The position numbers and the translations under genes were made by a program. A stretch of 64,000 bases of DNA from Microlunatus kandeliicorticis. GTDB taxonomy: Bacteria > Actinomycetota > Actinomycetes > Propionibacteriales > Propionibacteriaceae. The notes under the pieces were generated by a model, which saw only the letters and a program-made list of their open reading frames with translations, made no database searches and was not told the DNA's origin. Of the stretch, positions 647-63,936 are shown piece by piece (within the stretch, counting starts at the first letter, position 1; each line of letters starts with the position of its first letter). The DNA is taken from NCBI RefSeq assembly GCF_014137855.1, contig NZ_JACGWT010000001.1, positions 682,001 through 746,000 of the forward strand, written 5' to 3'.

Positions 647-3636
<2,990 letters not shown>

Positions 3637-3695: not shown

Positions 3696-5021
3696 ATGAG
3701 CCGCTGGAGCCACGCCCAGGTCGCCGCCCTGGCCCCCGACCAGGCGTCGCTGGCGGCCGCCCGCCGGCTGGCCCGGCCGGGGCCGTGGTCGGAGACCGGC
3801 TCGACCAACCTGCTGGTCTGGGGCCGGTGCCAGGGCTCGGGCCGGACGCCCTACCAGGTGAGCGTCGACCTGACCGGGCCGGCGTTCCGGTGCAGCTGTC
3901 CGAGCCGGAAGTTCCCGTGCAAGCACGGTCTCGCGCTGCTGCTGCTCTGGGTCGACGGCCAGGGCTCGGTGGCCGAGGTCGCGACGCCCTCGGACCAGGC
4001 GACCGCGGCCTGGGCGGCCGAGCGCGCGGCTCGGAACGCGTCCCGGGACGCCGCGGCGGCCACCACCCGGCAGCCCGACGAGGCCGCCGCGGCCTTGCGG
4101 CTGGCCCGCCGGTTGGCGCTGATGGACGCCGGCGTCGACGACTTCTCCCGCTGGCTGACCGACCTGGCCCGCACCGGGACGGCGGCGGCCCGGCAGCAGC
4201 CGTACGGCTGGTGGGACCAGGTGGCCGCCCGACTGGTCGACGCCCAGCTGCCCGGGCTGGCCGAGGACGTCCGGTCGGTGGGCGGTGAGGTGGCGGGGCG
4301 GACCGACTGGGCCGCGGCGCTGCTCCGCGCGCTGGGCCGGTGGTGGACCGCCACCCGCGCCTGGCTGGGCCGCGACCGGCTCGACGACGACCAGCTCGGC
4401 GACCTGCGGGCCTACCTGGGGTGGTCGGTGGCGAGCGAGAGCGTCCGCCGCCGGGGAAGCGTCCGCGACCGCTGGCTGGTGCTCGGTGCGCACCGCACCG
4501 ACGACGGCCGGCTGCTCCAGCAGCGCACCTGGCTGCGCGGGGCGGAGAGCGGGCTGACCGTCCAGTTCCTCGACTTCGCCGCCGGTGGACAGGTGCTGCC
4601 GGTGGCTAGGACGGTCGGCTCGACCCTGGAGGCCGCGGTGGCCCTGTACCCCGGCCGGGGGCCGCGACGCGGGCTGTTCGTCGACGAGCCGCTGGTGGTG
4701 GCCACCGGCGAGACCCCGCCGGCCGGGACGCCGCCGGCGCAGGTGGCCGAGGCGTTCGCCGCGCTGGTCGCGGCCAACCCGTGGGCCCAGCGGATGCCGG
4801 TGCTGCTCGACCGGGTCACGGTCGGGCCGGACCCGGAGCGCCCCGGGCGGCTGGTGGCCGCGGCCGCCGACGGCACCGGGTTCGCGCTGACCGCCGACGT
4901 CGAGCCGTGGCCGCTGCTCGCGCTGACCGGTGGCCGGGCCGACCGGTTGTTCGGCGAGTACGAGCACGGCCGGCTGCGGCCGCTGGCCGCCGCGGTCGGC
5001 GGCGGGTTGGTGGGATGGTGA
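3696..5021 (+). CDS. SWIM zinc finger protein, first gene of a MoxR/VWA operon
   Basis: This 441-residue protein has a SWIM zinc-binding motif, CxCx6CxH, near the N-terminus: Cys66, Cys68, Cys75 and His77 in RCSCPSRKFPCKH. A helix for nucleic-acid or protein contact follows. The rest (residues 90-441) has no motif I recognise. It is rich in Trp and Arg and contains a repeated beta-type pattern from about 270. SWIM domains are known to bind DNA or proteins; here the partner is unknown. The ATG at 3696 follows GGCGGGG. The stop codon overlaps the start of the next gene (ATGGTGA at 5015-5021), so the two are translationally coupled. The gene heads five co-directional genes that keep the same order in other actinobacteria, as far as I know. 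Confidence 0.85.
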   Translation: MSRWSHAQVAALAPDQASLAAARRLARPGPWSETGSTNLLVWGRCQGSGRTPYQVSVDLTGPAFRCSCPSRKFPCKHGLALLLLWVDGQGSVAEVATPSDQATAAWAAERAARNASRDAAAATTRQPDEAAAALRLARRLALMDAGVDDFSRWLTDLARTGTAAARQQPYGWWDQVAARLVDAQLPGLAEDVRSVGGEVAGRTDWAAALLRALGRWWTATRAWLGRDRLDDDQLGDLRAYLGWSVASESVRRRGSVRDRWLVLGAHRTDDGRLLQQRTWLRGAESGLTVQFLDFAAGGQVLPVARTVGSTLEAAVALYPGRGPRRGLFVDEPLVVATGETPPAGTPPAQVAEAFAALVAANPWAQRMPVLLDRVTVGPDPERPGRLVAAAADGTGFALTADVEPWPLLALTGGRADRLFGEYEHGRLRPLAAAVGGGLVGW

Positions 5022-6700
5022 CCGTCGTGGACCCGAGCGTGGTCGAGGCGGCCGGATCCGACCCGGTGGACCACTGGTGGCGCGAGCTCGGCACCGCGGC
5101 GCTGTTGGGGACGGCCCGCCGCGGTGTCCCGCCGCTGCCGGCGGGGCTCGGCGCGCCCGCGGCGCAGACCGCCGACGGCGGCACCGCGGGCGCCGCCGCG
5201 ACTCCGGACGCCGCCGCGATTCCGGACGCCGCGGTGGCCCTGCTCGACGCTGCGGCGCTGGCCGGGGTGCTCGACCGCGTCGGCCGCCGTCCCGGTCCGG
5301 TGCCGGTCGCCGAACCGGCGCCCGCGGAGACCGCGCCGACGGCCGGGGCCCGCGCCGTGCAGCTGCTCGAGCTGGTGCTGACCAGCCCACCCGGGCCCGT
5401 CGACCAGCGCGGTCTGGTCGTCCACTGGCTCGCGCACGCCCGGGCCGCCCGGGTGCTGGTGACCCCGCCGCTGCTGCCCGTGGTGCTGGCCCTCGGGGCC
5501 CGCGACCGCGACCTCCGACCGGCCGTCGCCGCGGTGGTCGGCCGGCGTGGCCGGTGGCTGGCCGCGCTCAACCCGGACTGGCGCTGGCTCGGTCGGCTCG
5601 AGGAGGCCGTCCCGGCACCGGATCCCTCCGCCCCCGCTGACGCGGCACCTGCCGACGCGGTATCTGTAGACGCGGCCCCTGCTGGAGCGGACTGGGCCCG
5701 CACGCCCACCCCGGCCCGGGTCGCGCTGCTCGGGCGACTCCGCCGCACCGACCCGGCGCGCGGCCGGGTGCTGGTGGAGTCGACCTGGACCACCGACGGG
5801 GCCCGCGACCGGGCTGACCTGCTCGCCGCGCTGGCCGTCGGGATCGGGCCGGACGACGAGCCGCTGCTCGAGCGTGCGCTCGACGACCGCGGCCGCGCCG
5901 TCCGGGAGACCGCGGCCACCCTGCTCGACCGGCTGCCGGGCTCGGCCCGGGCCGGCCGGATGGCCGACCGGTTGCGCACGCTGGTCCACCGGGCCGGGCT
6001 GACCGGCCGGCGGCTCGAGATCGGCGTCCCGGCCGACCCGGACCCGGCCGGGGTCCGCGACGGACTCGGACCGCCCCCGCCGCAGCGTTCGGCCCGCGGC
6101 TGGTGGCTCGAGCAGATCTGCGCCGCCGCACCGCTGGCCGTCTGGCGCGAGCTCGCCCGGGCCGACCCGGAGACCACGCTCGAACGGATCACCGACCCGG
6201 ACGTCCTCCGCGGGCTGGCGCGCGCGGCCCGCGACCAGCGCGACCCGGACTGGGCGGGTGCGCTGCTCGACCGCGACCCGGGCCCGGGCCTGCTGCCCGG
6301 GCTGCTGCCGGTGCTGCCGCCCGAGCGACGCGAGCGGGTCGTCCTCGGGCTGCTGGAGCCCCGGGTCCGGGACGCCCGATCGGCCGGGCGGGCCGGCGGT
6401 CCGTCGGCGGCGGCGCCGGCGAGCCGGCCGGTGCTCGAGTCGGCCTTCGCGACGCTGGACGAGCCCTGGTCGGCGGCATTCAGCCGCGCGGTGCTGGCCC
6501 GGCTGCACGCGCTGCCCCACCCGGCGGCCACGGTCACCGCCCTGCGGGCCCCGCTGTCCACGGCCCTCGACCCGGCCGCGTTGCCCGCGGTGGAAGGCTG
6601 GCTCTCCGAGGCCGGTCTCGACCGGTCGCTGGCCACCACCCTCCGCGCCGTCCTGCAGGTCCACTCACTCCGCCGATCGATCAGCGAGGCCTTCCGATGA
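5015..6700 (+). CDS. DUF5691-like HEAT-type repeat protein
   Basis: This 561-residue protein begins MVTVVDPSVVEAAGS and then reads WWRELGTAALLGTARRGVP, a block typical of the DUF5691 family found next to SWIM genes. The middle is a helical repeat-like region rich in Leu/Ala/Arg (for example LRRTDPARGRVLVESTW, then ALDDRGRAVRETAATLLDRLP), which looks like HEAT-type helical repeats; this is inference from pattern only. There are no catalytic motifs, signal peptide or membrane segments. A low-complexity Ala/Asp/Pro stretch near residues 195-225 (APADAAPADAVSVDAAPAG) is probably a linker. The start overlaps the SWIM stop, and its TGA overlaps the ATG of the MoxR gene. A scaffold or adaptor role beside the ATPase is plausible but unproven. 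Confidence 0.75.
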   Translation: MVTVVDPSVVEAAGSDPVDHWWRELGTAALLGTARRGVPPLPAGLGAPAAQTADGGTAGAAATPDAAAIPDAAVALLDAAALAGVLDRVGRRPGPVPVAEPAPAETAPTAGARAVQLLELVLTSPPGPVDQRGLVVHWLAHARAARVLVTPPLLPVVLALGARDRDLRPAVAAVVGRRGRWLAALNPDWRWLGRLEEAVPAPDPSAPADAAPADAVSVDAAPAGADWARTPTPARVALLGRLRRTDPARGRVLVESTWTTDGARDRADLLAALAVGIGPDDEPLLERALDDRGRAVRETAATLLDRLPGSARAGRMADRLRTLVHRAGLTGRRLEIGVPADPDPAGVRDGLGPPPPQRSARGWWLEQICAAAPLAVWRELARADPETTLERITDPDVLRGLARAARDQRDPDWAGALLDRDPGPGLLPGLLPVLPPERRERVVLGLLEPRVRDARSAGRAGGPSAAAPASRPVLESAFATLDEPWSAAFSRAVLARLHALPHPAATVTALRAPLSTALDPAALPAVEGWLSEAGLDRSLATTLRAVLQVHSLRRSISEAFR

Positions 6701-7833
6701 CGACGCCACCCGCCCCGGACCACGACCCCGCACCCGGGGCCGAGGTGCTCACGGCCCGCGAGGTGCTCCGCGAACCCGCCGAGGTGGCCTACGCCGACGA
6801 GCTCGCCGCGCTGGCCGCCGCCGACGACCGGCCGCGGCCACCGCGCTGGCGGCTGTCGCCGTGGGCGGTCACCACCTACCTGCTCGGCGGCACCCTCGGC
6901 GACGGCACGGTGATCACCCCGAAGTACCTGGGCTCGCGGCGGCTGATGGAGATCGCGGTCGCCTCGCTGGCCACCGACCGGGCGCTGCTGCTGCTCGGCG
7001 TCCCCGGGACCGCCAAGACCTGGGTCGGTGAGCACCTGGCCGCCGCGGTCTCCGGCAGCTCGGCGCTGGTCGTCCAGGGCACCGCCGGGACGCCCGAGGA
7101 GTCGCTGCGCTACGGCTGGAACTACGCCCGGCTGCTGGCCGAGGGACCGAGCCGCGCGGCGCTGGTGCCGAGCCCGGTGATGCGGGCGATGGAGTCGGGC
7201 GCGGTCGTCCGCATCGAGGAGCTGACCCGGATCCCCGCCGACGTCCAGGACGCGCTGATCACCATCCTCAGCGAGAAGACGCTCCCGGTGCCCGAGCTCG
7301 ACACCCAGGTGCCGGCGCGGCCGGGGTTCAACGTGATCGCCACCGCCAACAACCGCGACAAGGGCGTCAACGAGCTGTCCTCGGCGCTCAAGCGCCGGTT
7401 CAACACCGTGGTGCTGCCGCTGCCGGACACCCTCGAGCAGGAGGTGGAGATCGTCCGCACCCGGGTGGCGGCGATCGGTGCCGGGCTCGCCCTGCCCGCC
7501 GACGTCGGCGCGACCAGCGAGATCGAGCGGGTGGTCACGGTGTTCCGCGAGCTCAGGTCGGGGACCACCGCCGACCAGCGCACCACGGTCAAGTCGCCGT
7601 CGGCGACGCTGTCGACGGCCGAGGCGATCTCGGTGATGACCAACGGTCTCGCCCTGGCCGCGCACTTCGGCGACGGCACCGTCCGGGCCGACGACGTCGC
7701 CGCCGGGCTCGTCGGCGCGGTGGTCAAGGACCCGGTGCAGGACCGGCTGGTCTGGCAGGAGTACCTGGAGACGGTGGTCAAGGACCGCCGCAGCTGGGCC
7801 GACCTCTACCGCGCCTGCCGCGAGCTCGGCTGA
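6697..7833 (+). CDS. MoxR-type AAA+ ATPase
   Basis: This is a 378-residue AAA+ ATPase of the MoxR type, a class of chaperone-like remodelling ATPases that usually works with a VWA-domain partner. Walker A is GVPGTAKT near residue 101, with the MoxR-type Ala before the Lys. Walker B is VVRIEELTR near 170. Sensor 1 lies in NVIATANNRDKG near 212, and the arginine finger region is ELSSALKRRFN near 226-233. A C-terminal helical lid follows from about 270 (STAEAISVMTNGLALAAHFG). ATG 6697 overlaps the preceding TGA (ATGA), and the next gene starts 3 bases after its stop. The VWA gene two places downstream is the expected partner. Substrates are unknown. Confidence 0.93.
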   Translation: MTTPPAPDHDPAPGAEVLTAREVLREPAEVAYADELAALAAADDRPRPPRWRLSPWAVTTYLLGGTLGDGTVITPKYLGSRRLMEIAVASLATDRALLLLGVPGTAKTWVGEHLAAAVSGSSALVVQGTAGTPEESLRYGWNYARLLAEGPSRAALVPSPVMRAMESGAVVRIEELTRIPADVQDALITILSEKTLPVPELDTQVPARPGFNVIATANNRDKGVNELSSALKRRFNTVVLPLPDTLEQEVEIVRTRVAAIGAGLALPADVGATSEIERVVTVFRELRSGTTADQRTTVKSPSATLSTAEAISVMTNGLALAAHFGDGTVRADDVAAGLVGAVVKDPVQDRLVWQEYLETVVKDRRSWADLYRACRELG

Positions 7834-7836
7834 CCC

Positions 7837-10254
7837 GTGCCCCCGGTCGAGCAGGTCTCGCAGGTCGCGGCGGCCGAGCAGCCAGAGCAGGTGGGCGGAC
7901 CGCGGGTCGAGGTGCTCGGCGTCCGGCACCACGGGCCGGGATCGGCACGCTCGGTGCTCCGCGCGCTGGACGAGCTGGGCCCCGAGCTGGTGGTGATCGA
8001 GGGCCCGCCCGAGCTCGACGACCTGGTGGCCACCGCGGCCGATCCCGACCTGGTGCCACCGGTGGCCGCGCTGGTCTATGCCGTCGACCAGCCCCGCCGG
8101 GCGGTGTTCTATCCGTTCGCGGTGTTCTCGCCCGAGTGGGTGGCGCTGCGCTGGGCGCTGGAGCACGGCGTCGAGGTCCGGTTCGCCGACCTGCCGGCCA
8201 CCCACCTGCTCGCCGGTGATCACCTCGACCGTGGTCGTGACGACGGTGTTGATCATGACTCTGGTGATCATGACGCTGAGGATGATGACGCTGATGATCA
8301 TGACGCTGGTGATCACGACGCCGATGATCATGACGCCGAGCCGCGTCGCGGTCGGCCGGGTCGCGCCGCCGGGGTGGCGCTCCGCCGCAGCGACCCGATC
8401 GCGGCGCTGGCCGAGGCGGCCGGCTACGACGACCCCGAGCGGTGGTGGGAGGACGCCGTCGAGCAGCGACGGACCGGCGCCGAGACCTCGGCCCTGACGC
8501 ACTTCGCCGCTCTGCGCGAGGCGATGGCCGGGGCGCGCGACCAGCTCGCCGACGACGACGACCCGCGCCGCGAGGCGTTCATGCGCCGGACGCTGCGGGC
8601 CGAGCTCAAGGCCGGCCGGTCGCGGATCGCCGTGGTCTGTGGCGCCTTCCACGCCCCCGTGCTGGATCCCGCGGCCTTTCCGCCGGTCGCGCGCGACACC
8701 GCCCTGACGGTCCGGCAGCCCCGGATCAAGGTGCGGGCCACCTGGGTGCCGTGGAGCGCGGCCCGGCTCGGCTACGCCAGCGGCTACGGCGCCGGCGTCC
8801 GCTCGCCCGGCTGGTACCGGCACCTGTTCACCACCCCCGACGACGCGGTGGTCGCCTCCTGGTTCGTCCGGGTCGGCCGCGCGCTCCGCGAGCAACAGCT
8901 CGACACCTCGGTCGCCTCGGTGGTCGAGGCGACCCGGCTGGCCGGGGCGCTGGCCGCGGTCCGCGGGCGTCCGTCGGTCGGGCTGACCGAGCTCGAGGAC
9001 GCCGCCCGGACCGTGCTCACCGAGGGCTCCGACCTGCCGCTCCGGCTGATCGACCGGACGCTCGTGGTGGGCGAGGAGCTGGGGCGGGTGCCCGACTCGA
9101 CCCCGACCGTCCCGCTCGCCGCCGACCTCGCCGCCACCCAGCGCCGGTTGCGGCTGCCGGTCACCGCCGAGCCGCGGACCATCGAGATCGACCTGCGCCG
9201 CGAGAGCCAGCTGGCGCGCTCGGTGTTGCTGCACCGGCTCGACCTGCTGGGCATCGGGTGGGGCCGTGAGGTCGACGCCGGTCGCAGCACCGGCACCTTC
9301 AAGGAGGCCTGGGAGCTGGCCTGGTCGCCGGAGCTGGCCGTCGCGGTGATCGAGGCCAGCCTCTACGGCACCACCGTGCCCGACGCCGCCGCCGCGCGCG
9401 CCGCCGAGCTGGCCCGTGACGCGTCCGACCTGACCGCACTCGGCGTGCTGATCGAGCGGTGCCTGCTCGCCGACCTGCCGGACGGGCTGCGGGCCGCGGT
9501 CGCCGTGCTCGCCGAACGCACGGCCCGGCAGCACGACACCCTGGCGCTGCTCCGCACCGTCGAGCCGCTCAGTCGCACCTGCCGCTACGGCGACGTCCGC
9601 GGCGTCGACCTCGGCGAGGTGTCCGCCGTGCTGGAGACGGTGGTGGTCCGGGTCGCGGTCGGGTTGCGGGCCGCCTGCGTCGGGCTGGACGACGACGGCG
9701 CCCAGACCGCCCGGACGGCGGTGGAGAGTGCCGACCGCGGCATCACGCTGCTCGACCGGCCCGCGCTGACCGGTCCGTGGCGACAGGCGCTGGCCGCGGT
9801 GGCCGCCGACGACCGCGTACACGGCTCGGTGTCCGGACGGGCCACCCGGCTGCTGCTCGACGCCGGGCTGGTCGACCGCGACACCGCCGCCCGGCGGCTG
9901 GCCCGAAGGCTTTCGACCGGGACGCCGGCCCCCGCGGCGGCGGCTTGGCTCGACGGCTTCCTGACCGGCGAGGCGATGCTGCTGATCCACGGCGACGACC
10001 TGCTGGCCACCATCGACGGCTGGCTGGCTGCGGCGCCCGAACCGGTGTTCGAGGACCTGCTGCCGCTGGTTCGGCGGACGTTCGCTCGGTTCGAGCCGGG
10101 GGAGCGGCGGCTGCTCGGCGAGCGGCTGCGCCGGATCGGGACCGGGGAACGGGTGGTCGAGGCGTCGCTCGGGCTCGACCTGGCGCTGGCCGCGCCTGCG
10201 CTGGCCACCGTGACCCGGCTGCTGGGTCTGCCCGGCCCGGAGGACGACCGGTGA
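7837..10254 (+). CDS. DUF5682-like protein with TraB/ChaN-type motifs
   Basis: This 805-residue protein is the largest member of the operon. Residues 28-40 read GVRHHGPGSARSV, residues 52-60 VVIEGPPEL, and residues 267-273 VCGAFHA. The first glutamate motif and the GxxH motif match the signature seen in the TraB/TIKI/EreA/ChaN superfamily, to which I infer the N-terminal 300 residues belong. The C-terminal 450 residues are helical and Leu/Arg-rich with no known motif. Residues 128-168 form an insertion of alternating Asp and His (DHD, DDHDA units) encoded by repeated GATCATGAC, which looks like a metal-binding or disordered tract. The start is GTG 7837, 3 bases after the MoxR stop; its TGA overlaps the GTG of the VWA gene. 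Biochemical activity is unknown. Confidence 0.75.
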   Translation: MPPVEQVSQVAAAEQPEQVGGPRVEVLGVRHHGPGSARSVLRALDELGPELVVIEGPPELDDLVATAADPDLVPPVAALVYAVDQPRRAVFYPFAVFSPEWVALRWALEHGVEVRFADLPATHLLAGDHLDRGRDDGVDHDSGDHDAEDDDADDHDAGDHDADDHDAEPRRGRPGRAAGVALRRSDPIAALAEAAGYDDPERWWEDAVEQRRTGAETSALTHFAALREAMAGARDQLADDDDPRREAFMRRTLRAELKAGRSRIAVVCGAFHAPVLDPAAFPPVARDTALTVRQPRIKVRATWVPWSAARLGYASGYGAGVRSPGWYRHLFTTPDDAVVASWFVRVGRALREQQLDTSVASVVEATRLAGALAAVRGRPSVGLTELEDAARTVLTEGSDLPLRLIDRTLVVGEELGRVPDSTPTVPLAADLAATQRRLRLPVTAEPRTIEIDLRRESQLARSVLLHRLDLLGIGWGREVDAGRSTGTFKEAWELAWSPELAVAVIEASLYGTTVPDAAAARAAELARDASDLTALGVLIERCLLADLPDGLRAAVAVLAERTARQHDTLALLRTVEPLSRTCRYGDVRGVDLGEVSAVLETVVVRVAVGLRAACVGLDDDGAQTARTAVESADRGITLLDRPALTGPWRQALAAVAADDRVHGSVSGRATRLLLDAGLVDRDTAARRLARRLSTGTPAPAAAAWLDGFLTGEAMLLIHGDDLLATIDGWLAAAPEPVFEDLLPLVRRTFARFEPGERRLLGERLRRIGTGERVVEASLGLDLALAAPALATVTRLLGLPGPEDDR

Positions 10255-11450
10255 GCGAGGAGGACGTGCTGTCCGACGACGCGGACGCGGGCGAGGACCG
10301 GCACCGGCTGATCCGGTGGCGGCTGGTGCTCGGCGGTGAGGACGCCGACGGCATCGGTGAGGCGGCGACGCTCGACGACGACGACCAGCGCCGCGACGCC
10401 GCGCTCCGCGAGCTCTACGACGGACCGCGTCGGGGTGGTCTGGGGGCGTCGGCGCCGCGGGTGGCCCGCTGGCTGGGCGACATCCGCACCTACTTCCCGT
10501 CCTCGGTGGTCCAGGTGCTCCAGTCGGACGCCATGAGCCGGCTCGGACTGACCGAGCTGCTGCTCGAACCCGAGCTGATGCGGGCCGTCCAGCCCGACCT
10601 GGGGCTGGTGACCACGCTGGTCGGGCTCAACCGGGTGATCCCCGAGCGGTCGCGCGAGACGGCCCGCGCGGTGGTGCGGACGGTCACCGACCAGCTCGAG
10701 GAGCGGCTGCGGTCGGCCACCGTCCAGGCGGTCACCGGCGCGCTGAACCGGTCGGCGCGGACCCGGCGCCCGCGACCGTCCGACGTGGACTGGCCGGCCA
10801 CCATCAGCGCGAACCTGCGGCACTACCAGCCCGAGCACCGGACGGTGATCCCGGAGCGGTTGGTCGGGCACGCCCGGCGCAGCACGAGGGTGGAGCGCCG
10901 GATCATCCTGTGTCTCGACCAGTCGGGCTCGATGGCCGAGTCGGTGGTCTACGCCAGCGTGTTCGGTGCGGTGCTGGCCTCGCTGCGGTCGGTGGACACA
11001 CGGCTGGTGGTCTTCGACACCGCGGTGGCCGACCTGACCGACGAGCTCGACGACCCGGTCGACCTGCTGTTCGGGGTCCAGCTCGGTGGCGGCACCGACA
11101 TCAACCAGGCGCTGGCCTACTGCCAGGGGCTGATCGAGCAACCCGAGGACACCGTGCTGGTGCTGATCTCCGACCTCTACGAGGGCGGGCTCGCCGAGGA
11201 GCTGGTCCGTCGGGCCGCCGCGGTGGTCGGCTCCGGGGCGACCATGATCACCCTGCTCGCGCTGAGCGACTCCGGTCGCCCCGGCTACGACGCCGACCAC
11301 GCTGCGGCCCTCGCCGCCGTCGGCGTCCCGACCTTCGCCTGCACCCCCGACCAGTTCCCGGAGCTGATGGCCACCGCGATCGAGCGCCGCGACATCGGTT
11401 CCTGGGCCGCGACCCAGGGCATCGCCCTCGCCGAGCCCGACACCCCCTGA
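10251..11450 (+). CDS. VWA domain protein, MoxR partner
   Basis: This 399-residue protein has an N-terminal helical region (about 1-210) and a C-terminal von Willebrand A domain with an intact metal-ion-dependent adhesion site. The DxSxS motif is in LCLDQSGSMAES from about residue 223, the Thr in LGGGTDINQ near 282, and the Asp in LISDLYEGG near 308. VWA proteins commonly act with MoxR ATPases to bind or mature a target through a bound divalent metal. The N-terminal part begins with an acidic segment (SEEDVLSDDADAGED) and includes DIRTYFPSSVVQVLQ and a long Arg-rich helix before the VWA domain. GTG 10251 overlaps the previous TGA (GTGA). It is the last gene of the operon and is followed by a repeat-filled convergent junction. 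Confidence 0.9.
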   Translation: MSEEDVLSDDADAGEDRHRLIRWRLVLGGEDADGIGEAATLDDDDQRRDAALRELYDGPRRGGLGASAPRVARWLGDIRTYFPSSVVQVLQSDAMSRLGLTELLLEPELMRAVQPDLGLVTTLVGLNRVIPERSRETARAVVRTVTDQLEERLRSATVQAVTGALNRSARTRRPRPSDVDWPATISANLRHYQPEHRTVIPERLVGHARRSTRVERRIILCLDQSGSMAESVVYASVFGAVLASLRSVDTRLVVFDTAVADLTDELDDPVDLLFGVQLGGGTDINQALAYCQGLIEQPEDTVLVLISDLYEGGLAEELVRRAAAVVGSGATMITLLALSDSGRPGYDADHAAALAAVGVPTFACTPDQFPELMATAIERRDIGSWAATQGIALAEPDTP

Positions 11451-11668
11451 GCCCACGTCCTGCGCTCAGCCAGGACGCGCGCAGAGCCTGCCGAAGCGCT
11501 TGTGGTGAGTGGAGGGTCGACCCAACCGTGGAAGGGATGCTCCTCAAGACGCGCGCTGAGCTTGTCGAAGCGCCGAGCTCGCCCTTCGACAGGCTCAGGG
11601 CACTGGGTGGGGGTTCGCACTCGCGTCCGCGTGCTGAGCCCGTCGAAGCGCGGAGCCGCAACTGGCGC
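11451..11668. repeat. Dispersed CTTCGACARGCTCAG repeats at a convergent junction
   Basis: Between two convergent genes lie several copies of the repeat, in both orientations. CGCTGAGCTTGTCGAAGCG is at about 11553-11571, CCCTTCGACAGGCTCAGGG at about 11582-11600, and TGCTGAGCCCGTCGAAGCG at about 11632-11650, with a degenerate copy near 11488. The first two face each other and can fold into a stem-loop with a short spacer. The region contains no supportable gene. Such a pair could act as a two-way transcription stop or be a mobile short palindrome. Confidence 0.75.
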
Positions 11669-39387: not shown

Positions 39388-39729
39388 CCACCCCACCCCC
39401 GTGCCCTGAGCCTGTCGAAGGGCGGGTAGGGCGCGCTTCGACAAGCTCAGCGCACGGATGCGCTTGCTCGCCCACGGTGCCCTGAGCCTGTCGAAGGGCG
39501 TCCCCATCCACGGTGCCCTGAGTCGACCCACCCGGTGCCCTGAGCCTGTCGAAGGGCAGGTAGGGGCGCGCTTCGACAGGCTCAGCGCACGGATGCGCTT
39601 CGACAAGCTCAGCGCACGGTGCGCCCCAGCTACGGCGCCCTGAGCCTGTCGAAGGGCGGGAAGAGCGCGCTTCGACAAGCTCAGCGCACGGAGGCTGGGA
39701 CCAGCTCAGCGCAGGGATGCGCGCGGGGC
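39388..39729. repeat. Cluster of CTTCGACARGCTCAG repeats in a gene-free stretch
   Basis: Between the convergent arabinofuranosidase and acyl-CoA ligase genes there is no gene. About nine copies occur in both orientations. CCCTGAGCCTGTCGAAGGGC is near 39404, 39480, 39540 and 39639. CGCTTCGACAAGCTCAGCGCACGG or its CAGG variant is near 39433, 39569, 39596 and 39668. Adjacent opposite copies can form stem-loops. This is the densest cluster of the repeat in the window. Confidence 0.85.
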
Positions 39730-61215: not shown

Positions 61216-61544
61216 CGGCGTCTCCGGGCACCTGCGCCGAGCCTGTCGAGGCGCGGGCTAGGAGTGACGTGCGCTGAGCCTGTCGAAGCGGGCTCGGGGA
61301 GCGGTGGATCCGTCCGTCGCGCGCGGGCTCCGGGGTCGACGCGCTCGCAACCAGTCTCCCTCGCAGGCTCGGTCGACGGCCAGACCCATCCACGCTCGCG
61401 CATCGACCCCGGAGCCCCCACGCTCCTCCTGCTCGCGGTGCCGCGCGCTAGGCCTGTCGAAGTGCGCACCCGCGCTGAGAAAGCCGCACTCGACGGGCGT
61501 TCCGGCACCCCGCACGGCGTGGCGCGCGATCGAGTGCGGGTTTC
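61216..61544. repeat. Junction with dispersed repeats and two long inverted repeats
   Basis: There is no gene. CTTCGACAGGCTCAG-type copies (as GAGCCTGTCGAAGCG) lie near 61237 and 61275, with a diverged copy near 61450. An inverted repeat 61325-61343 / 61399-61417 matches in 18 of 19 positions. Another, 61473-61493 / 61530-61550, matches in 20 of 21, and its right arm covers the end of the methyltransferase gene. Confidence 0.8.
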
Positions 61545-63708: not shown

Positions 63709-63835
63709 CCGATGCTTCGCTGCCGAGGCTCGGGTCGCGATCTGGACAGGGCTTTCCGCAGTGGGCAAGGTGCCGGGTCGATCGAGCCGCCCGAGAGAGG
63801 CGTTTCGACGGGCTCAGCGCACGTGTCGCGTGGGG
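63709..63835. other. Gene-free stretch after the operator
   Basis: No supportable gene. It contains one diverged repeat copy, TTTCGACGGGCTCAGCGCACG at about 63803-63823. Confidence 0.5.
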
Positions 63836-63936
63836 CGCTTCGACAGGCTCAGCGCGCGTATCGCTTCGACGGGCTCAGTGCGCGTATCGCTTCGACGGGC
63901 TCAGTGCGCGTATCGCTTCGACCGGCTCAGCGTGCG
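63836..63936. repeat. 26-bp tandem repeats (CTTCGACGGGCTCAG family)
   Basis: Units begin at 63836, 63862, 63888 and 63914 (last unit partial, 23 bases). The common unit is CGCTTCGACGGGCTCAGTGCGCGTAT. Units two and three are identical. They are the same repeat family as the copies at 11451-11668, 39388-39729 and 61216-61544, here expanded head to tail. Confidence 0.92.

What the first reader, a model, noticed from the sequence alone, without database searches (positions are those of the whole stretch)
3696..11450. Five-gene SWIM / DUF5691 / MoxR / DUF5682 / VWA operon, a candidate undescribed remodelling system
Seen: five co-directional genes; three of the four junctions overlap by start/stop and the fourth (MoxR to DUF5682) has a 3-base gap. 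Known: MoxR ATPases and VWA proteins pair to insert metals or mature complexes, and related MoxR-VWA units with extra components have been proposed as NTP-dependent conflict systems. Inference: a SWIM zinc finger, a HEAT-like protein and a TraB/ChaN-like protein in the same unit suggest a targeted chaperone or regulated-proteolysis-like machine.
Basis: partly seen in the sequence, partly recalled or inferred. Interest (0 to 1): 0.75.

Follow-up and report, generated by a model that had tools for sequence, protein, structure and literature searches.

The report
Conserved five-gene protein-remodelling operon
Five tightly packed genes encode a motor protein, its partner and three helpers, one of which looks like an enzyme; related sets sit uncharacterised in E. 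coli and many other bacteria, and probably reshape or trim a protein that nobody has identified yet.

Summary
It is not an isolated curiosity: 68 of the 80 best-matching loci, from several phyla, hold all five genes, and the MoxR-DUF5682-VWA-SWIM core is E. coli yehL-yehM-yehP-yehQ. The locus therefore belongs to the named YehL subfamily of MoxR ATPases, of unknown function. New here: (i) the core recurs in three other architectures with other partner proteins; (ii) natural fusions join SWIM to DUF5691 and DUF5682 to VWA; (iii) the DUF5682 N-terminal domain carries a TraB/TIKI-like signature (His31, Glu55, Asp118, Arg245-Glu246, His272), invariant in 120 of 120 sequences. Best reading: an ATP-driven MoxR-VWA machine that presents a protein, recruited by SWIM-DUF5691, to a TIKI-like hydrolase. 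The hydrolase step is inferred and the TIKI link is below curated thresholds. A defence role is not supported: PADLOC gave only two weak matches to the ATPase, the window operon has no defence neighbours, and 5155 of 5426 E. coli genomes carry at least 80% of yehLMPQ.

The parts
3696..5021 (+). SWIM zinc-finger protein (441 aa)
   Evidence: PF04434 over cut-off; region outside the finger related to E. coli YehQ-type proteins, HHalign P = 7e-4, score 38.3 against a maximum of 18.9 in 15 shuffles
3891..3926 (+). SWIM motif C66-x-C68 ... C75-x-H77
   Evidence: invariant in 45 of 45 aligned; pattern in 82 of 83
5018..6700 (+). DUF5691 protein (560 aa), possible HEAT-like repeat scaffold
   Evidence: PF18944 358.5 bits; profile hits alphaRep designs, best E = 3.8e-4; fused in frame to SWIM in 8 loci
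6697..7833 (+). YehL-type MoxR AAA+ ATPase (378 aa)
   Evidence: PF07728 131.5 bits; 40.7% identity over 359 aa to E. coli YehL, E = 6e-80, against E = 0.054 for RavA
6997..7020 (+). Walker A GVPGTAKT
   Evidence: pattern G.PGT[AG]K[ST] in 114 of 114
7216..7221 (+). Walker B position, Glu174-Glu175 (R-x-E-E form)
   Evidence: 114 of 114
7837..10254 (+). DUF5682 protein (805 aa), TIKI/TraB-like N-terminal domain plus long C-terminal part
   Evidence: PF18934 798.4 bits; alignments
7900..8736 (+). DUF5682 N-terminal domain, predicted hydrolase domain (residues 22-300)
   Evidence: HHalign to TraB family score 29.5, P = 0.0014; 100 shuffles mean 12.2, sd 2.5, max 21.3
7927..7929 (+). His31 of the GxRH motif, candidate catalytic residue
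   Evidence: 120 of 120
7999..8001 (+). Glu55, candidate catalytic residue
   Evidence: 120 of 120
8188..8190 (+). Asp118, invariant acidic residue
   Evidence: 120 of 120
8569..8574 (+). Arg245-Glu246 of the RExxM motif
   Evidence: 120 of 120; aligned with the RNxxM motif of TraB
8650..8652 (+). His272 of the second GxxH motif
   Evidence: 120 of 120; aligned with the GAGH motif of TraB
10251..11450 (+). CoxE-type VWA protein (399 aa)
   Evidence: PF05762 184.2 bits; fused in frame behind DUF5682 in 6 genomes
10917..10931 (+). MIDAS D-x-S-x-S (D223-S227)
   Evidence: 30 of 30 aligned; DQSxSM in 104 of 110, the other 6 (all class C) read DVSGS
11172..11174 (+). MIDAS Asp308
   Evidence: 30 of 30 aligned

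Best explanation
The operon is a window-type ('class A') member of the YehL family of MoxR-VWA machines, the counterpart of E. coli yehLMPQ. Most likely mechanism: the MoxR ATPase forms a hexamer (inferred from RavA and NorQ). The VWA protein plugs its pore and holds the target through its MIDAS metal site (inferred from NorQ-NorD). SWIM and DUF5691 form one recognition/scaffold unit (their fusion is shown; the role is inferred). DUF5682 is tied to the VWA protein (fusion shown, in class C) and carries a TIKI/TraB-like active site (signature shown). It cleaves or hydrolyses a bond in the target once ATP turnover has exposed it (inferred). No target gene was found beside the operon. In short: a targeted, energy-dependent remodelling-and-processing machine, more likely cellular maintenance than defence.
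For: Conserved clustering: 68 of 80 loci and 18 of 18 DUF5691 genomes. Fusions: SWIM::DUF5691 in 8 loci and DUF5682::VWA in 6 genomes. In 14 of 80 loci (13 Streptomyces, 1 Streptantibioticus) the five genes stay together as two divergent units, so the link is not mere co-transcription. Motifs: MoxR Walker A and B 114 of 114, VWA DxSxS, SWIM 82 of 83. DUF5682 residues H31, E55, D118, R245, E246, G269, H272 in 120 of 120 sequences, E. coli type and classes C and D included. Profile match to TraB at the RExxM...GxxH motif, above 100 of 100 shuffles and seven other families. Published MoxR-VWA mechanics: PMC13036017 (abstract), PMC9976466 (passages). TIKI enzymes use a His-Glu pair: PMC6254334 (passages).
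Against: The TIKI/TraB link is below any curated cut-off and rests on about 30 strongly aligned columns without a structure. With 45 window-like sequences alone it was weaker (P = 0.011, probability 3.8%), and the global alignment mode gave no sensible alignment. The Glu two residues before the first His in the published 2His/2Glu set has no counterpart (residues 29-30 are Val-Arg). A TIKI-fold protein without activity is known; ChaN binds haem (recalled). The VWA element LGGG[TN][DN] is in 103 of 110 and was not found in the six class C proteins. I found no target, phenotype or measured interaction. yehI-yehQ are deleted from the reduced E. coli DGF-298 (PMC10652928, passage).
Confidence: 0.4

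Rival explanations
1. Assembly or cofactor-insertion chaperone without proteolysis. As NorQD does for nitric oxide reductase and CoxDE for CO dehydrogenase, the MoxR-VWA pair opens a client enzyme. DUF5682 supplies or holds a metal or haem (the TIKI-fold protein ChaN binds haem, recalled), and SWIM-DUF5691 recognises the client.
For: CoxE-type VWA; MoxR profile matches NorQ and midasin; NorQD mechanism. In E. coli molR lies just before yehI (PMC10652928, passage), and MolR may be involved in molybdate regulation (cited in PMC8533742, passage).
Against: No gene recurs beside the operon across phyla: the widest such cluster covers 5 of 90 loci at scattered positions within 6 kb. The invariant His/Glu/Asp/Arg set looks enzymatic.
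Confidence: 0.3
2. Anti-phage or other conflict system, akin to the MoxR-vWA ternary systems.
For: Ancestral relation of MoxR-vWA conflict systems to CoxDE (PMC7159879, passages). One E. coli-type copy on a mobilisable plasmid beside type I restriction genes. Partner proteins differ between architectures. Weak IetA matches of the MoxR (E = 0.008 and 0.013).
Against: No other PADLOC match at E up to 0.1 in five proteins; no defence gene among ten flanking window proteins scanned with Pfam. yehLMPQ is found in 5311 of 5426 E. coli genomes, 5155 with at least 80% cover (intactness of the frames was not checked). 14 of 19 other same-genus genomes carry DUF5682. VMAP-M0 and bpMoxR matches are below cut-off.
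Confidence: 0.12
3. Chromosome-associated remodeller acting on proteins at DNA, for example in damage response. The SWIM finger and the WGR/DUF4132 proteins of the E. coli type would direct it there.
For: WGR-family gene yehF (PF05406) and DUF4132 near yehL; WGR fused to DUF4132 in a class B locus. D. radiodurans DUF4132 operon strongly upregulated on DdrO depletion (PMC8533742, passage). A pyrimidine-dimer-glycosylase-like gene lies beyond the peroxidase in the window.
Against: No clear excess of LexA-type or RDRM-like sites in the 400 bases upstream of the SWIM match in 71 loci: up to 1 mismatch in 2, 8 and 16 of 71 for three LexA forms against 15, 29 and 51 of 355 control stretches; RDRM up to 3 mismatches in 4 of 71 against 13 of 355. 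With a profile built from three seeds, DUF4132 was seen near only three of the 80 named loci (L109, L130, L140).
Confidence: 0.12

Closest known systems
E. coli yehL-yehM-yehP-yehQ (YehL subfamily of MoxR ATPases)
   Same: Homologous MoxR (40.7% identity), DUF5682 (23%), VWA (36%) and SWIM proteins in one cluster
   Different: E. coli type has DUF4132 (YehI) and YehK instead of DUF5691, the SWIM gene comes last, and YehQ-type proteins are longer, with two SWIM motifs in a relative (L009)
NorQ-NorD, CoxD-CoxE and other MoxR-VWA maturation pairs
   Same: MoxR ATPase plus VWA with MIDAS; MoxR profile reaches NorQ (E = 1.2e-4)
   Different: Three extra conserved subunits, no client enzyme found alongside, and an enzyme-like DUF5682
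RavA-ViaA
   Same: MoxR plus VWA pair in E. coli; weak ViaA model match (16.1 bits against a cut-off of 500)
   Different: Window MoxR vs RavA only E = 0.054; no SWIM or DUF5682 annotated in the 10-kb stretch fetched
TIKI/TraB superfamily hydrolases (TraB, Ere, ChaN)
   Same: Order of motifs GxxH, Glu, R[EN]xxM, GxxH
   Different: Below curated thresholds; one of the two catalytic Glu positions not conserved; very long C-terminal extension
MoxR-vWA ternary conflict systems (VMAP, iSTAND, FtsH, beta-propeller)
   Same: MoxR-VWA core
   Different: None of the defining third components over its Pfam cut-off

Membership tests
YehL subfamily of MoxR ATPases | sequence closer to YehL than to other MoxR groups | tested here: met
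   E = 6e-80 to YehL, 0.054 to RavA, 1e-7 to the best own-genome row (L184); YehL-like rows on one side of a branch with 94/88 support (long branches, 4 of 11 own AAA_5 loci not in that set, no named NorQ/CbbQ/CoxD rows). tblastn against all 11 own loci: best E = 0.001, again L184
YehL subfamily of MoxR ATPases | gene neighbourhood with VWA, DUF5682 and SWIM | tested here: met
MoxR AAA+ ATPase | Walker A and Walker B | tested here: met
   114 of 114; Walker B has Glu-Glu where most MoxR have Asp-Glu (recalled; the own-genome row L184 reads ADEI)
MoxR AAA+ ATPase | helix-2 insert and hexamer | not testable with these tools
   structure prediction switched off
MoxR-partner VWA (CoxE type) | PF05762 match and MIDAS DxSxS...D | tested here: met
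TIKI/TraB superfamily | two conserved His with a conserved Glu between them | tested here: met
   H31, E55, H272 in 120 of 120
TIKI/TraB superfamily | second catalytic Glu two residues before the first His | tested here: not met
   residues 29-30 are Val-Arg; defining set from PMC6254334 passages
TIKI/TraB superfamily | curated Pfam model reached | tested here: not met
   only DUF5682 listed at E up to 0.1
TIKI/TraB superfamily | profile similarity to TraB | tested here: inconclusive
   P = 0.0014, 0 of 100 shuffles as high, best of eight families, but HHalign probability only 17.7%; P = 0.011 with the narrower alignment
TIKI/TraB superfamily | fold and hydrolytic activity | not testable with these tools
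HEAT-repeat proteins (DUF5691) | sequence match to HEAT-type repeats | tested here: inconclusive
   alphaRep E = 3.8e-4; chain named HEAT repeat domain-containing protein (6veh) E = 0.095
MoxR-vWA ternary conflict systems | VMAP, iSTAND, FtsH or beta-propeller component | tested here: not met
   VMAP-M0 16.1 bits against cut-off 25.9 and bpMoxR 19.8 against 27, both on the MoxR; nothing else of this kind listed
MoxR-VWA cofactor-insertion pair | client metalloenzyme in the cluster | tested here: not met
   no sixth gene recurs across phyla within 6 kb in 90 loci

The most novel reading that the evidence does not exclude
The YehL family is an ATP-driven processing enzyme of a new design. A MoxR ring and a VWA clamp feed a target to a built-in TIKI/TraB-type hydrolase, while an exchangeable partner (DUF5691, DUF4132, or the class C and D proteins) chooses the target. 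If so, E. coli and many actinomycetes would carry an unrecognised energy-dependent protease or hydrolase unlike Clp, Lon, FtsH and the proteasome.
Probability: 0.3. Interest if true: 0.85.

Novelty: new variant of a known kind. Interest (0 to 1): 0.55.

Why it matters
At least 80% of yehLMPQ is found in 5155 of 5426 complete E. coli genomes, yet I found no paper on its function in the searches made. The invariant residues and the fusions give concrete predictions that can be tested in E. coli K-12: which proteins touch, and which three residues should be catalytic. If DUF5682 is a hydrolase, MoxR-VWA machines are not only assembly chaperones.

Tried and rejected
Defence system: PADLOC scan of the five proteins gave only two weak IetA matches to the MoxR; rejected as the main reading. 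SOS or radiation-response control: no clear excess of LexA-type or RDRM-like patterns upstream of SWIM in 71 loci. Homology between DUF5691, DUF4132 and the class C large protein: none seen (HHalign P 0.26-0.58), so 'exchangeable partner' is a matter of position, not of shared ancestry; the class D 463-aa protein was not put through that comparison. The class C protein with a SWIM-type motif shows no likeness to the class A SWIM profile (P = 0.4) and a weak one to the YehQ type (P = 0.01). No repeat evidence for DUF4132. DUF5682 against the Ere family: P = 0.043, not better than the DUF5691 control (P = 0.033). PDB profile search with DUF5682 and SWIM: nothing below E = 0.7; with VWA: nothing at E up to 0.01. 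A recurrent sixth gene: large clusters only in Streptomyces and near kin. PF04187 (ChaN-like) search in 119 genomes of the phylum found none, so no ChaN comparison was made. Literature: DUF5682/DUF5691 gave 0 papers, two or more of yehL/yehM/yehP/yehQ gave 2, YehL with MoxR gave 4; only open-licence papers are held.

Rows dropped: L007 (Hymenobacter) also showed SWIM and DUF5691 in one frame, but its genes are frame-broken, so it was left out of the fusion count (9 found, 8 kept). Counts use distinct hits above a length limit (DUF5682 at least 600 aa: 138 hits, 120 distinct).
Full report
What is there. Five complete co-directional genes fill 3696-11450: a SWIM zinc-finger protein, a DUF5691 protein, a MoxR ATPase, a DUF5682 protein and a CoxE-type VWA protein. 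Junctions are 4-nt overlap, 4-nt overlap, 3-nt gap, 4-nt overlap. Of ten flanking proteins scanned with Pfam, eight had matches: a peroxidase (1261-3630, minus strand, divergent), a pyrimidine-dimer-glycosylase-like gene beyond it, and downstream an oxidoreductase, an EthD-domain protein, a UPF0261 protein and three transporter genes. None of these points to a defence island or to an obvious client enzyme. The window lies in a 4.3-Mb genome assembly.

Spread. In 296 genomes drawn from the phylum (own included), DUF5682 passes its cut-off in 21 and DUF5691 in 18; all 18 are DUF5682 genomes and the two genes lie 1.2-3.3 kb apart. Of the three DUF5682 genomes without DUF5691, G124 has the E. coli type with DUF4132, G204 has two other types, and in G259 DUF5682 lies on a 4.4-kb contig. 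In 57 nearer genomes (own included), 33 carry DUF5682, among them 14 of 19 other members of the genus. By their titles they come from actinobacteria, cyanobacteria, Bacteroidota, Chloroflexi, planctomycetes, proteobacteria and others. Because they were ranked by likeness to the query, they favour the window type. Of these 80, 68 hold all five genes: 53 in the window's order and strand, 14 with SWIM-DUF5691 divergent from MoxR-DUF5682-VWA (13 Streptomyces and 1 Streptantibioticus) and 1 with VWA first. Of the other 12, 8 are cut by contig ends; L097 and L121 lack SWIM and VWA respectively in 1.5-1.7 kb of available sequence; L072 and L093 lack neighbours on their long side.

Four architectures. 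Class A is the window type. It has MoxR and a DUF5682::VWA fusion; in the four loci read at length there is also a protein of about 1,600 aa upstream (no Pfam match in the two scanned, L049 and L045) and a SWIM-type CxC...CxH motif downstream. Class D, in three loci, has a 463-aa protein (51-56% identity), VWA, MoxR and DUF5682; the only SWIM-type pattern seen was in a 115-aa frame of L053 and looks like chance. Thus MoxR-DUF5682-VWA is the constant triad, SWIM or a SWIM-type motif accompanies it in A, B and C, and the remaining partner changes. DUF5691, DUF4132 and the class C large protein show no detectable mutual homology. The class A SWIM protein and YehQ-type proteins are related outside the finger (HHalign P = 7e-4, score 38.3 against a maximum of 18.9 in 15 shuffles); the class C SWIM-type protein is not visibly related to class A (P = 0.4) and only weakly to YehQ (P = 0.01).

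Physical links. DUF5682 and VWA share one frame in 6 genomes. Such fusions are good evidence that the separate proteins touch. They place SWIM with DUF5691, and DUF5682 with VWA.

Motifs. MoxR keeps Walker A and an R-x-E-E Walker B in 114 of 114 sequences. VWA keeps DQSxSM in 104 of 110, and the other six (class C) read DVSGS; the element LGGG[TN][DN] is in 103 of 110 and not found in class C; [ST]D[LF]xE is in 109 of 110. SWIM keeps its four ligands in 82 of 83. In DUF5682, 19 chosen positions were counted over 120 distinct sequences: H31, P34, E55, D118, W204, E209, R245, E246, M249, G269, H272 and R351 never change, while R30 becomes Cys in the 3 class D sequences and H32 varies in 3. E. 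coli YehM is only 23% identical to the window protein. The order GxRH, Glu, Asp, RExxM, GxxH recalls the TIKI/TraB superfamily, whose enzymes use a His-Glu pair (PMC6254334, passages).

Testing the TIKI/TraB link. Sixteen TraB-family sequences came from ten genomes that carry the operon. A DUF5682 N-domain profile of 120 sequences scores 29.5 against them (P = 0.0014, probability 17.7%); 100 column shuffles give mean 12.2, sd 2.5, max 21.3; the seven other families compared, a fairer yardstick than shuffles, reach at most 22.2. A profile of 70 sequences gave 28.4 with 0 of 60 shuffles as high and 16.0 reversed; one of 45 window-like sequences gave only 24.3 (P = 0.011, probability 3.8%). The aligned core is REAxMR...CGAxH on RNxxMa...GAGH; a permissive path also places GxRHH on GTMH and the Glu on a Glu, but the global mode found nothing sensible. 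Against it: no curated model is reached, PDB profile search finds nothing, and the Glu that precedes the first His in the published 2His/2Glu set is absent. I put the superfamily link at about 0.7 (a judgement).

The other parts. The MoxR is YehL-type: 40.7% identity over 359 aa to YehL, E = 6e-80, against 0.054 for RavA and 1e-7 for the best own-genome row. The tree agrees (94/88) but has long branches, lacks named NorQ, CbbQ or CoxD rows and missed 4 of 11 own AAA_5 loci; a later tblastn over all 11 found nothing better than E = 0.001. DUF5691 resembles designed alphaRep repeats (E = 3.8e-4), weak support for a HEAT-like solenoid. The MoxR profile matches midasin (1.7e-27) and NorQ (1.2e-4).

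How it most likely works. Shown: the conserved set, the fusions and the invariant motifs. From established systems: a VWA finger enters the MoxR pore (NorQD, PMC13036017, abstract) and the MIDAS site is proposed to bind the target rather than the ATPase (PMC9976466, passages). Inferred: SWIM-DUF5691 recruits a target, MoxR-VWA remodels it, and DUF5682, bound to VWA, hydrolyses it. Without the last step the machine is a chaperone, perhaps for cofactor insertion; that is the main rival.

Defence? PADLOC gives only two weak IetA matches to the MoxR (E = 0.008 and 0.013). yehLMPQ is matched in 5311 of 5426 complete E. coli genomes, 5155 with at least 80% cover, as expected of a core gene set; whether every frame is intact was not checked. 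The MoxR-vWA conflict systems of PMC7159879 (passages) have other third components; the word YehL does not occur in the held text. One plasmid copy beside restriction genes keeps the idea alive at low odds.

What is known. PMC3893208 (passages) lists YehL among seven MoxR subfamilies defined by sequence and local gene structure, and names YehL as one of two MoxR proteins in K-12. PMC5025477 (passages) reports that the molR promoter is activated by BglJ-RcsB. DGF-298 lacks yehI-yehQ and lives (PMC10652928, passage). PMC9334617 (passages) and PMC10910872 (passages) were looked at and add nothing on function. No held paper contains DUF5682 or DUF5691. So the family is known by name and its function is not. 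I did not find the multi-class anatomy, the fusions or the TIKI-like signature in the searches made, which cover open-licence papers only.

Limits. No structure or complex could be predicted. Counts over loci are not corrected for relatedness. Self-built gene profiles were used for counting; the one Pfam cross-check (Nocardia DUF5691) agreed once fused frames were read. None of these changes the odds.

Noticed in passing
window 11482-11648, 39406-39684, 61237-61462, 63803-63930: REP-like element: CTTCGACAGGCTCAG with up to 2 mismatches occurs 20 times, against 0.17 expected, in four clusters, one just behind the operon.
   Followed up: partly
window 8242-8336: 15-base tandem repeat (6.3 copies) inside DUF5682 encodes an Asp/His-rich stretch; 3 of 120 sequences, the window included, have 5 or more His in this variable insert.
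   Followed up: partly
L045, L049, L050, L051: Class C: a ~1,600-aa protein (no Pfam match in the two scanned), MoxR, DUF5682::VWA fusion, and a protein with a SWIM-type motif.
   Followed up: partly
L046, L053, L054: Fourth architecture: unknown 463-aa protein, VWA, MoxR and a divergent DUF5682 in which the GxRH motif reads PVCH.
   Followed up: partly
L006 1-17158: Iodobacter mobilisable plasmid carries the E. coli type with two DUF4132 genes next to type I restriction-modification genes.
   Followed up: no
L009 3626-8978: Agrobacterium vitis: NUDIX, two hypothetical genes and a gene annotated adenylosuccinate synthetase precede the MoxR gene.
   Followed up: no
L109, L130, L140 around 15.0-16.4 kb: Three Bacteroidota loci have a DUF4132 match downstream of the complete window-type operon, so DUF4132 and DUF5691 are not mutually exclusive.
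   Followed up: no
L072, L093: Two cyanobacterial loci encode DUF5682 without MoxR, VWA, SWIM or DUF5691 in the sequence held.
   Followed up: partly
L005 10238-11343; L007 8004-11425; L121 5276-6814: Copies in Methylosinus (VWA), Hymenobacter (DUF5682, VWA) and a Streptomyces (DUF5691) appear in several frame-broken pieces.
   Followed up: no
L011: A contig deposited as 'Bacteriophage sp.' (MT835988, marked unverified) carries MoxR-DUF5682-VWA and DUF5717; possibly bacterial DNA.
   Followed up: no
L002: The E. coli yeh locus appears on a 365-kb record labelled plasmid (CP137936), predicted non-mobilisable.
   Followed up: no
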